A stretch of DNA of 64,000 nucleotides, taken from the NCBI GenBank assembly GCA_948099385.1, contig CANUEZ040000165.1, forward strand, positions 1,624,501-1,688,500. Direction: 5' to 3'. Shown here piece after piece: positions 7,248-59,572 of the stretch. Origin of the DNA: Fasciola hepatica (taxonomy: Eukaryota; Platyhelminthes; Trematoda; Plagiorchiida; Fasciolidae). Both the position numbers and the translations under genes were made by a program. How positions within the stretch are numbered: position 1 is the stretch's first letter; each line of letters starts with the position of its first letter. A model generated the notes under the pieces. That model was not told where the DNA came from. It worked only from the letters and a program-made list of their open reading frames with translations, and did not search any database.

Positions 7248-7278
7248 AACGGTTCTCTGCCCTGTATATTAGTGCATG
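7248..7278 (+). other. Spliced-leader sequence at the head of a retrocopy
   Basis: Thirty-one bases, AACGGTTCTCTGCCC... ending ...TTAGTGCATG, match what I recall as the fasciolid trematode spliced leader, lacking its first few bases. The same sequence occurs at 43,688-43,720 on the other strand. It is followed directly by a 34-nt leader and the p24 start codon at 7,313. It is not an SL RNA gene, because no GT splice donor follows the ATG. The leader's own ATG (7,276-7,278) is out of frame with p24. Confidence 0.85.
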
Positions 7279-7312
7279 AGTTCGTCTCACAACCGTGTTG
7301 TTTATCTGAGCA

Positions 7313-7966
7313 ATGCTTCCTGTTTGGCGTCTGTGCTTCTTATTGCTCATTGATTTTTGCCTCGTTTTTGCTTATCCGAAACGATTCACTATTGAAATTC
7401 CCGATGGGGAAACGTTTTGCGCCTATGAGAACTTGTTCGCACTGAAAAAATATGCTCTGATGTATCAGGTTATTCATGGTGGGAATTTGGACGTCCATCT
7501 GATAATTCGTGATCCAATGAAACGTACTCTTCATGAGACAAAGCGTGGCTCGCATGAGGATATTAAATTCGACTCCCATGTCAATGGTACTTTCGAGTTC
7601 TGTTATGGCAACGAATTTTCTTCATTATCTGAGAAGCTGGTCTATTTTGAACTGAGGCCAGATCCGTACGAAACACTTTCATAAGAAGCGGGCGAGGCGC
7701 CTCATGTCACTGTTCTTACCATGGTACAGTCTGCACTGGAATCGGCCCATTTATATCTGTCACATGCTGAGAGCACTCAAATCGAGTTGCGCAATCGGGA
7801 ACTGGGTGATCGTTTGGTTGCAGAAGACCTCAATCAGGCTGTTTTGTATTGGAGTATTGCTGTGACCATTGCCATCTTTGTGACAACTCTGGGTCAAGTA
7901 ACAATACTGAAAAACTTTTTCGCTGATAAAAAGGTGTTCTATTCGACTCGTGCATCACGCATGTAA
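7313..7966 (+). pseudogene. p24/TMED family cargo receptor (gamma, TMED3/7-like), one in-frame stop
   Basis: Encodes a p24 protein, which in intact form is a type I membrane receptor of COPI/COPII vesicles cycling between ER and Golgi. The ATG at 7,313 gives a clear signal peptide (WRLCFLLLIDFCLVFA). A GOLD domain follows with two expected cysteines (ETFCAYE, FEFCYGNEF) and YQVIHGGNLDVHLIIRDP, then a helical region (AESTQIELRNREL), a membrane helix (VTIAIFVTTLGQV) and a short tail with the FF-type sorting motif (LKNFFADKK). A TAA at 7,682-7,684, between GOLD domain and helix, cuts the frame; the reading frame before and after it is the same. Only one disabling change is seen, so the copy is fairly young. 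I rate the product as non-functional, since the part before the stop would be secreted without an anchor. Confidence 0.88.
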
Positions 7967-34141: not shown

Positions 34142-35073
34142 TGTGGTACGGAAGTGTATGGCAACAATAAATGTGACTTTTGCAAATATATTGATAACTT
34201 ATAAAATAAAAGCGAGTTTTATCTCAGGGATTGGTTAATTTTGCTAATAGGACAAGCGGGCAGTTTGGCACGAATCAACGGGAAAAAAAGGATCATGAAC
34301 GGTGAGCCGAGTACGGAAACGGTCTTTTAACCCCGCGATAATTATGTGCTAGGGAAAGTAGATTTTTCTGGGCGTAGGAAACGGTAAGTTAAGGTTGCGA
34401 AGATGGAGACAAGTACGATGAAAAATAGGCGGTCACTGGGGGAGATAGTTCCATATTTGTAGCATTTCGGGTGAATGATTTTTTGCTGCGACCGGTGCTG
34501 GTGGGTGAGGCTGACCGTGCGCGGGACACCCAACCTGAAAACCGTTTTTGTTGACAGGTGCCATCCGCAATCCTATCTGCGTCCGCACATCGTTGCAGAC
34601 GTCCTGCACGCCCGATGTGCGTCGGCCAAAGTGGTGGATCTGACCGCGGCCCGCATCGGCGGGCTTCGCTTGAGTGATATTGGCGTTGTCACTTGGAGAT
34701 CGAATAATCCAGGAGCTTGCGACCAGGTTGCGAGGGGTCCTGGAGAGCATGGCCTGTGTGGTGATGACGAAATGACTAGCAGGTATCGAGTTTCCAGCGG
34801 GAAATGTGGGCCAGGTATTATGCCAAGCCATCGAAGGGAAGGCATCATCAGCGGTTGTCTGGAAAAGTAAAAATAGTCTGGGGTGCTCCCAGCTGAGGAT
34901 CAGCGGTCAGTAGTAAAGAAAAACCTCTAGTATCTATAAATTGGAACTACTTGGGGGATGGTTCGACTTTGCTAAACACAAGGTTTTACGCGAAAGATTA
35001 ATGAAACTTGAGTGGTATTTACGGCGACTTGTAGGGTACGTAGGTCTCGTGGCCCCCGACTCAGACCCGCGTG

Positions 35074-43568: not shown

Positions 43569-43722
43569 TTCAGTTCAGTTCAGTTCAGTTTGCACAGTAC
43601 TTGTTGTGGCTAGAGCCAATCGTGTTTCCAGATAGTTGTGTTGTCTGCGCGTTTCCGTAGCTCCAAACACTGCGTGATTTCCTTTTTCATGCACTAATAT
43701 ACAGGGCAGAGAACCGTTAAGC
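43569..43722 (-). mobile_element. SINE-like element with a spliced-leader head and LINE A-like tail
   Basis: A 154-bp insert with edges fixed by the host frame: Gypsy-2 integrase reads LVYGCT up to 43,723 and resumes LLLPGEL at 43,568. In minus-strand order: 33-nt spliced leader (43,720-43,688, TTAACGG...GTGCATG); a unique body starting AAAAAGGAAATC (43,687-43,633); a 3' region (43,632-43,591) resembling the last bases of LINE A, with about 39 of 50 positions equal over the compared tail by my hand count; and an (ACTGA)n-type pentamer repeat (43,590-43,569), the same as the LINE A end at 59,277-59,300. This is the build of a SINE: RNA-derived head, body, tail borrowed from a partner LINE. No target duplication and no pol III boxes are evident. 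It could also be a one-off chimeric retrocopy; copy number would decide. Confidence 0.75.
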
Positions 43723-48041: not shown

Positions 48042-48670
48042 TTCAGTTCAGTTCAGTTCAGCTTGCACAGCACGGGTAATAGCCACTGCCAACCGAGCAT
48101 CCAGAATTCCTTCGATGGTAAGCACACCGGTTATGCACCCACCACTGCACAGTGTATTTCGTCGAGTCCCCGCTAAAAATGAGAAGGAAAAGGAAAACCC
48201 CATCACACATCAACTGCGAGGGACACTGTGTACTATGAGCGTCCACTGAGACAGCAGGCAAGAGAAAAACGTCAACTAGAACACACCCCAGAATAACCAT
48301 GGTGTTATCAGTCGTCCATCTAGTTAACGTACTCAACGTTCACTGCAAAGAAATATTTCGTGTTACTTGTGATCTAGGAAATCTTCGATGGATTGGACGG
48401 CCTGCAGGTCTATCATCCCACCAGGCAGACTGTTCCAACTATTCTCTACTCTGTTGTTAAAGAAGTGTGTGCTAGTCATCAACCTGGCTCGAACTTACGT
48501 CAGCTTCTTTTCATGTCTCCTTGTTCTGGAATCTAAAGCCACTTGGAATAGACCATCTGGTCTAAGGCCAGAAAAACCCTTCATTAACTTGAACGTTTCC
48601 ATGAGATCCCCTCGACGTCCCCTTCTTTCCAACGAGAAGAGGCTCAGATCACAGTCTCTGTGTGTACGGA
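48042..48670 (-). mobile_element. LINE A 3' fragment
   Basis: Begins with (TTCAG)n, then the LINE A terminal sequence (GCACAGCACGGGTAATAGCC, CCAGAATTCCTTCGATGG, TGCACCCACCACTGC), the rest of the 3' UTR, and the last 100 or so codons of ORF2 on the minus strand (48,388-48,667; equivalents at 59,607-59,909 and 52,737-53,018). It is 5'-truncated at about 48,670 and moderately diverged from the intact copy. Confidence 0.85.
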
Positions 48671-59300: not shown

Positions 59301-59572
59301 TTGCACAGGACAGGTAATGGCCACGGCCAATCGAGCGTCCAGAATTCCTTCGATGGTATGCACACCAGTTATGCACCCACCACTGCCGAGTGTATTTCGT
59401 CGAATCCCCGCTAAAAATGAGAGGGAAACGGAAAACCTCATCGCACATCAACTGCGAGAGACATTATGCATCGTGAGCGTTCACTGAGACAGTATGCAAT
59501 GAGAGAAAAAGTCTGCTAAAACATACTCCAGAAGGACCACAGTGCTACCCGTCATCCATCTAGTTGATATTC

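What the first reader, a model, noticed from the sequence alone, without database searches (positions are those of the whole stretch)
43569..43722. A SINE-like element whose 5' head is the trans-spliced leader
The insert carries the 33-nt spliced leader at one end and the 3' tail and pentamer repeat of LINE A at the other. Its borders are fixed to within a few bases because it splits an otherwise continuous Gypsy-2 integrase frame (LVYGCT / LLLPGEL). SINEs with tRNA, 5S, 7SL or snRNA heads and a LINE-derived tail are known. I know of no described SINE with a spliced-leader head, though I cannot search the literature. The leader is not followed by a GT donor, so the head came from a trans-spliced RNA and not directly from an SL RNA gene. 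If it is a family, it would be a short parasite of LINE A that uses the host's capped leader.
Basis: partly seen in the sequence, partly recalled or inferred. Interest (0 to 1): 0.92.

Follow-up and report, generated by a model that had tools for sequence, protein, structure and literature searches.

The report
Spliced leader joined to LINE tails
A short jumping-gene insert in a flatworm genome begins with the cell's own messenger-RNA leader, most likely because the cell spliced that leader onto the tail of a LINE retrotransposon RNA before it was copied back into DNA; this recurs in several LINE families, so it looks like a repeated by-product and not one new SINE family.

Summary
The insert is exactly 154 bp (43569-43722): on the minus strand one extra G, spliced-leader (SL) nt 4-37, then the last 119 nt of a LINE ending in (CTGAA)4. 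Nine of nine other Gypsy copies examined are uninterrupted there.

The SINE-family reading is not supported. In 59 of 59 distinct ordinary copies of this LINE, the junction follows a 3' splice acceptor in the 3'UTR (TTTCTGCCTTTCAG|A). Eleven loci have the SL, or its 3' remnant, at that same base, with different flanks and no detectable lineage of their own.

The splicing explanation made predictions that held. LINE A has another acceptor; SL is joined there in 16 of 40 scored hits. Decoy AGs gave 0 of 40 and 0 of 40. A third LINE gave 3 new loci. A fourth element agrees.

Best reading: SL is trans-spliced onto LINE RNA near its 3' end, and the roughly 155-nt product, which keeps the LINE 3' end, is retroposed: a trans-spliced analogue of human L1 SpIREs. 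SL-tagged elements in flukes are noted in print; my searches found no account of this mechanism. No RNA was tested.

The parts
43569..43722 (-). the whole insert, 154 bp, in a degenerate Gypsy integrase region, no target-site duplication
   Evidence: 9 of 9 other Gypsy copies examined are uninterrupted at this point
43722..43722 (-). one extra G before the leader, absent from the SL at that place and from the empty site; probably untemplated
   Evidence: its origin is inference
43688..43721 (-). spliced leader nt 4-37 (34 nt), ending in ATG and not followed by GT
   Evidence: identical to nt 4-37 of the SL in PMC3795323; SL RNA genes in the same genome
43569..43687 (-). last 119 nt of LINE B; first base is the first base after the LINE B 3'UTR splice acceptor
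43569..43588 (-). (CTGAA)4 end of the LINE
59411..59412 (-). AG of the 3'UTR splice acceptor of a LINE A copy (TTTCCCTCTCATTTTTAG|CGGGG), the site used to predict SL-LINE A joins
48173..48174 (-). AG of the same acceptor in a second LINE A copy
34859..34860 (-). AG of the acceptor of a fourth element (ACTTTTCCAG|ACAACC), unspliced here; L016, L033 and L034 begin SL|ACAACC

Best explanation
The insert is a trans-spliced, retroposed LINE 3' end. LINE B RNA carries a good 3' splice acceptor in its 3'UTR, 86 nt after the stop codon and about 120 nt from the 3' end. The host's SL trans-splicing machinery joins the 37-nt leader to that acceptor, which removes the LINE coding region and leaves an RNA of about 155 nt. 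That RNA keeps the LINE 3' end and the CTGAA repeats, so the LINE enzyme copies and inserts it. The event recurs from LINE RNAs and in several LINE families; SL-headed copies do not detectably give rise to further SL-headed copies. Shown from sequence: exact junction, acceptor in the parent, exact empty site, recurrence at different acceptors, absence at two decoys, no lineage detected. Inferred: splicing in the living worm, copying by the LINE enzyme, and the extra G as an untemplated base.
For: 59 of 59 distinct plain LINE B copies have AG at the junction, behind a pyrimidine tract; one more (L041) has it with one base inserted. Eleven SL-headed loci share the junction position and differ in flanks. 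Exact empty site in 9 of 9 Gypsy copies; L119 reads as a second one, inside the coding region of another copy of the same LINE. Prediction for LINE A: 16 of 40 scored hits cross SL|CGGGG; 8 of the 16 were read and all 8 join at that base. Decoy AG 41 nt upstream in LINE A: 0 of 40. Decoy AG 32 nt upstream in LINE B: 0 of 40. Third LINE: 3 new loci at the predicted place. Fourth element: acceptor in the window, SL in L016, L033, L034. No lineage among SL copies: LINE B 7 of 11 closer to a plain copy, 4 tied; LINE A 7 of 8 closer, 1 not. SL-headed copies of host mRNAs exist in the same genome.
Against: No RNA was seen. The LINE copies are related, so 59 of 59 is not 59 independent observations. 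L122 (LINE A) is nearer another SL copy (8) than a plain copy (9). Five mutations are shared by two SL copies and absent from the plain LINE B sample, two of them joining L015 and L118. The two copies identical to the LINE consensus (L002, L005) could come from either source. The plain copies outnumber SL copies in the comparison, which favours a plain nearest neighbour. Eight of the 16 LINE A hits were not read. The three third-LINE loci keep the junction position but differ from the one known plain copy at several bases.
Confidence: 0.92

Rival explanations
1. A true SINE family: an SL-headed copy is itself transcribed and amplifies through its LINE tail.
For: At least 11 copies share junction and tail; L002 and L005 have identical bodies over the compared positions, and L015 and L118 share two mutations not seen in the plain sample.
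Against: No SL copy is closer to another SL copy than to a plain LINE copy in LINE B; mutations shared by two or more SL copies are 11 against 10.8 +/- 2.5 expected for unrelated copies; L002 and L005 equal the LINE consensus; the same structure arises at a different acceptor in other LINEs.
Confidence: 0.04
2. Template switching: LINE reverse transcriptase jumps from LINE RNA to an SL RNA or a trans-spliced mRNA during insertion, as proposed for U6-L1 chimeras.
For: Known for L1 with small RNAs (PMC13174262, passages); the heads of several copies are truncated, and L120 has a partial second SL beside the first, which a jump could explain.
Against: The join is at the SL donor end and the LINE acceptor base in all 11 LINE B loci and all 8 LINE A loci read; decoy positions give 0 of 40 twice; no SL intron sequence follows the SL in these copies.
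Confidence: 0.03
3. Assembly artefact or two successive insertions (an SL-bearing retrocopy next to a LINE end).
For: Boroni et al. raised chimeric assembly for SL inside schistosome elements (PMC5832876, passages).
Against: Exact 154-bp insertion against 9 uninterrupted copies; the same junction on many contigs; old copies have both heads and bodies mutated (L015, L118).
Confidence: 0.01

Closest known systems
SpIREs, spliced integrated retrotransposed elements of human L1 (PMC5860796; abstract and outline seen)
   Same: A LINE RNA is spliced at an acceptor of its own and the shortened RNA is retroposed; described as mostly a dead end.
   Different: There the donor is in the same L1 RNA and the loss is in the 5'UTR or ORF1. 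Here the upstream exon is the host's spliced leader in trans, the acceptor is in the 3'UTR, and the whole coding region is lost.
L1 chimeras with mRNAs and small RNAs, trans-splicing among the proposed routes (PMC13174262; passages seen)
   Same: Foreign RNA at the 5' end of a LINE piece, splice sites at some junctions.
   Different: There each case has its own partner and trans-splicing is one possibility; 'spliced leader' does not occur in that text. Here one dedicated leader recurs at fixed acceptors in several LINE families.
SL loci next to LINE and LTR elements in flatworms (PMC12582326, sections 6 and 25 and passages; PMC5832876, passages)
   Same: Same phylum and same idea: SL sequences at mobile elements may come from retroposed trans-spliced transcripts (597 discarded loci; six S. 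mansoni elements).
   Different: In the parts seen they are set aside as a filter or a remark; no acceptor, no 3'UTR product and no control is given in those parts. Supplements were not seen.
SL-tagged retrogenes of dinoflagellates (PMC12014239; abstract and passages)
   Same: An SL remnant in DNA marks a retroposed trans-spliced RNA.
   Different: Those are copies of protein-coding mRNAs, not LINE 3' ends.
SINEs with RNA-gene heads and LINE tails (recalled; related passages in PMC4233971)
   Same: Short, non-coding, RNA-derived head, LINE-derived tail.
   Different: No evidence here that SL-headed copies beget SL-headed copies.

Membership tests
SINE family | short non-coding element with an RNA-derived head and a LINE tail | tested here: met
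   154 bp, SL head, LINE B tail
SINE family | copies descend from copies of the same composite element | tested here: not met
   7 of 11 closer to a plain LINE copy, 4 tied, none closer to an SL copy; shared mutations at the level of unrelated copies; LINE A 7 of 8 closer to a plain copy, 1 not
SINE family | own internal RNA polymerase III promoter | not tested
   no promoter search was made; Rfam finds no family in the window at its thresholds
SpIRE-like spliced LINE insertion | junction falls on a splice acceptor of the parent LINE | tested here: met
   59 of 59 plain copies; LINE A 16 of 40 against decoys 0 of 40 and 0 of 40
SpIRE-like spliced LINE insertion | upstream end falls on a splice donor | tested here: met
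   the SL ends at ATG, where SL RNA gene units with an intact donor continue with GT
SpIRE-like spliced LINE insertion | donor in the same LINE RNA (cis) | tested here: not met
   the upstream exon is the SL, encoded elsewhere; so it works like a SpIRE but is not one as defined for human L1
SpIRE-like spliced LINE insertion | retroposition hallmarks of L1 (target-site duplication, A-rich tail) | tested here: not met
   no target duplication and a CTGAA tail; plain LINE B copies also end in CTGAA repeats
SpIRE-like spliced LINE insertion | spliced RNA detected | not testable with these tools
   no RNA data held
SL-tagged retrocopy | SL remnant at the 5' end of a retroposed RNA | tested here: met
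CR1-like LINE (parent, LINE B) | reverse transcriptase domain | tested here: met
   PF00078, E 2.3e-33, in L008
CR1-like LINE (parent, LINE B) | place in the CR1 clade by phylogeny | not tested
   the name CR1-like is a recalled likeness (short terminal repeats, no clear target duplication)

The most novel reading that the evidence does not exclude
SL trans-splicing into LINE 3'UTRs is not an accident but a standing process. Three related LINEs have a strong acceptor some 14-24 nt upstream of the same 3' box (GCAGTG), so their RNAs may routinely be cut there, either as a host check that strips the coding region or because the short leader-capped RNA serves the element. In animals with a spliced leader it would also be a one-step route by which SINE-like elements are born. 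The evidence does not exclude this, but conservation of the acceptor by selection was not tested.
Probability: 0.15. Interest if true: 0.8.

Novelty: new variant of a known kind. Interest (0 to 1): 0.58.

Why it matters
It explains, with predictions that could have failed, how a host leader ends up at the head of short LINE-tailed inserts. It turns a passing remark in the flatworm SL literature into a concrete mechanism with a parent acceptor, fixed junctions and decoy controls. It gives a simple probe (SL plus the sequence after any LINE acceptor) for such events in other trans-splicing animals, shows that LINE RNAs probably meet the SL spliceosome, and offers a plausible first step for SINE birth in such animals. 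It also warns that searches for SL genes and repeat libraries in flukes will pick up such hybrids.

Tried and rejected
Without result: a pattern scan of the whole genome for all SL-LINE B junctions did not complete, so there is no complete census. Counts come from DNA queries that score at most 40 places each and are lower bounds. Rfam finds nothing in the window at its thresholds. Other trematode genomes and RNA data were not available to search.

Considered and rejected: an SL RNA gene remnant (no GT or SL intron follows); LINE A as the source of the tail (83% over 66 nt, against 95-96% for LINE B); a one-off chimera (11 loci); a SINE lineage; template switching.

Statements that I found no published account rest on paper searches in an open-licence library only, read as listings; of the papers opened I saw abstracts, outlines, passages or named sections, none in full. 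Paper search looked for the SL letters.

Full report
What is there. The window lies in a 1.5-Gb genome (G000, contig C165). Its leader is nt 4-37 of the flatworm SL listed as 'Platyhelminthe 2' in PMC3795323 (one passage seen; match checked). The minus strand of 43569-43722 reads one extra G, SL nt 4-37, then 119 nt ending in (CTGAA)4. Nine of nine other Gypsy copies examined (of 1665 first-look candidates, 40 scored, 10 fetched including the window's own) run straight through this site, so the insert is exactly 154 bp without target duplication. Two corrections: the leader is 34 nt, and the tail is not LINE A's.

Whose tail it is. The body matches many genome copies (431 first-look candidates, 40 scored); 33 of those 40 rows stop at the junction and 7 go on into SL. 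Read in the element's sense, plain copies continue upstream as ...CTGATACTGCACAAAATTTCTGCCTTTCAG|AAAAAGAAAATCACGCAG.... L003, L006, L007 and L008 share about 1.5 kb upstream; in L008 this is an open reverse-transcriptase frame (PF00078, E 2.3e-33), in the others the frame is partly broken. The stop codon lies 86 nt before the junction in L003, L006 and L008. I call this LINE B; it is related to LINE A of the window (about 67% over 371 nt of the coding part). So the first base of the body is the first base after a good 3' splice acceptor in the LINE B 3'UTR. At the final recount, 72 distinct 3' ends were in hand: 59 with LINE sequence upstream, all 59 with AG at the junction; L041, the same with one base inserted; 11 with SL; and one (L058, second match) with unrelated sequence upstream. 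An earlier, looser count gave 61 of 61.

How often it occurs. SL or its 3' remnant is joined at this base in 11 loci: window (L001), L002, L004, L005 (7 nt of SL left), L012, L013, L015, L026 (ATG mutated to AAG), L062 (10 nt left), L118 and L119. Rows with such a head were 7 of 40, 7 of 40 and 10 of 40. Their flanks differ. Five of the 11 heads are 34-37 nt long by my reading (window, L002, L004, L015, L118). L119 reads as a second exact empty site, inside the coding region of another copy of the same LINE, again with nothing duplicated. The queries carry the SL and so favour SL copies; these are not frequencies.

Family or repeated event. Over 100 aligned positions the 11 SL copies were compared with 61 plain copies (L058's second match was dropped and L118 moved to the SL group before the count). 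Seven SL copies are closer to a plain LINE copy than to any SL copy, four are tied, none is closer to an SL copy. Eleven mutations are shared by two or more SL copies; 10.8 +/- 2.5 are expected for unrelated copies with the same numbers of mutations. Five of the eleven are absent from the plain sample, two of these joining L015 and L118. All six differences of the window copy also occur in plain copies. There are more plain than SL copies in the comparison, which favours a plain neighbour, so this is evidence against a lineage and not proof.

Predictions. If trans-splicing makes the junction, a LINE with another acceptor should be joined at its own AG. LINE A has ...TTTCCGTTTCCCTCTCATTTTTAG|CGGGGATTCGACG. 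A probe of SL plus the sequence after that AG gave 16 of 40 scored hits (94 first-look candidates) with at least 8 nt on both sides of the junction. Eight of the 16 were read: all 8 join at that base, with point changes in some, and have their own flanks. The other 8 were not read. A decoy AG 41 nt upstream in LINE A gave 0 of 40. A decoy AG 32 nt upstream in LINE B gave 0 of 40; one hit there runs 7 nt past the junction. In LINE A 20 of 20 plain copies show AG at the site, but one of them (window 63815) is truncated and its AG is not the LINE's. Seven of the 8 SL copies are closer to a plain copy; L122 is not (8 against 9). Shared mutations are 4 against 3.0 +/- 1.5.

Third and fourth elements. 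A third LINE, known here from one degenerate copy in L003 with AAATTCTTCCTCTCAG|ACCAAAAATTC, was probed in the same way. Five of 40 scored hits cross the junction; two are LINE B copies (C101 and the window's own) and three are new. The three were read: SL is followed by the same 22-nt distance to the end of the GCAGTG box, but several bases after the junction differ from L003. A fourth element lies unspliced in the window with ...ACTATTTTTACTTTTCCAG|ACAACCGCTG (34859-34860), and L016, L033 and L034 begin SL|ACAACC; L016 matches the window copy at 85% over 738 nt from the junction on.

Mechanism. Shown from sequence: donor end of the SL, acceptor in the parent, empty site, recurrence at different acceptors, absence at two decoys. 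Inferred: the SL is trans-spliced to LINE RNA in the worm; the short RNA keeps the LINE 3' end that the LINE enzyme recognises; that enzyme inserts it by target-primed reverse transcription. Copies of host mRNAs with SL heads in the same genome show that SL-bearing RNAs are retroposed in general: a 390-aa DEAD-box helicase frame at L014, and a p24-family copy in the window at 7248.

Comparison. The nearest kind is the SpIRE of human L1 (PMC5860796, abstract and outline): a spliced LINE RNA retroposed, mostly a dead end. Here the upstream exon is the host leader in trans and the acceptor is in the 3'UTR, so it works like a SpIRE without being one as defined. Trans-splicing has been proposed for some L1-mRNA chimeras (PMC13174262, passages). 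Flatworm papers mention SL beside LINE and LTR elements and suggest retroposed trans-spliced transcripts (PMC12582326, sections 6 and 25 and passages; PMC5832876, passages). I therefore call it a new variant of a known kind. It resembles a SINE in shape only: descent from copies of itself was tested and not met.

Limits. One genome, no RNA, no complete census; the genome tool scores at most 40 places per query.

Noticed in passing
window 7248-7966 (+): A second SL-headed retrocopy in the window: SL nt 7-37 followed by a p24/emp24-family (PF01105) frame without visible introns, in two open pieces separated by one stop.
   Followed up: partly
L019, L020/L021, L027/L028, L075: An LTR retrotransposon, gag-like DUF7041 in L028, carries the SL inside its roughly 490-bp LTR; on C149 and C43 it sits in two copies about 4.7 kb apart, as expected for a pair of LTRs.
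   Followed up: partly
L017 and L022: Two copies of a roughly 1040-bp sequence starting at the SL, 99.8% identical with different flanks and ending ...AGAAATATACCATTATT; possibly a true SL-headed repeat.
   Followed up: partly
L024, L025, L073: SL-headed copies that begin at the same place after the SL although 17-26% diverged; L024 and L025 share a tail resembling that of L017/L022.
   Followed up: no
L018, L030, L031, L035-L038 (contig C214): SL RNA gene array with units about 1.1 kb apart; in several units the GT donor after the SL reads AT (ATAAG or ATGAG).
   Followed up: no
L014, L023, L032: SL heads followed by host-gene frames: DEAD-box helicase (390 aa open), MBT-repeat protein, tetraspanin.
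   Followed up: partly
L120: A partial second SL lies just upstream of the SL of this SL-LINE A copy.
   Followed up: no
3'UTRs of LINE A (window 59410), LINE B (L008) and the third LINE (L003 near 2047): All three have a pyrimidine tract and AG some 14-24 nt upstream of a shared GCAGTG box; whether selection keeps it was not tested.
   Followed up: no
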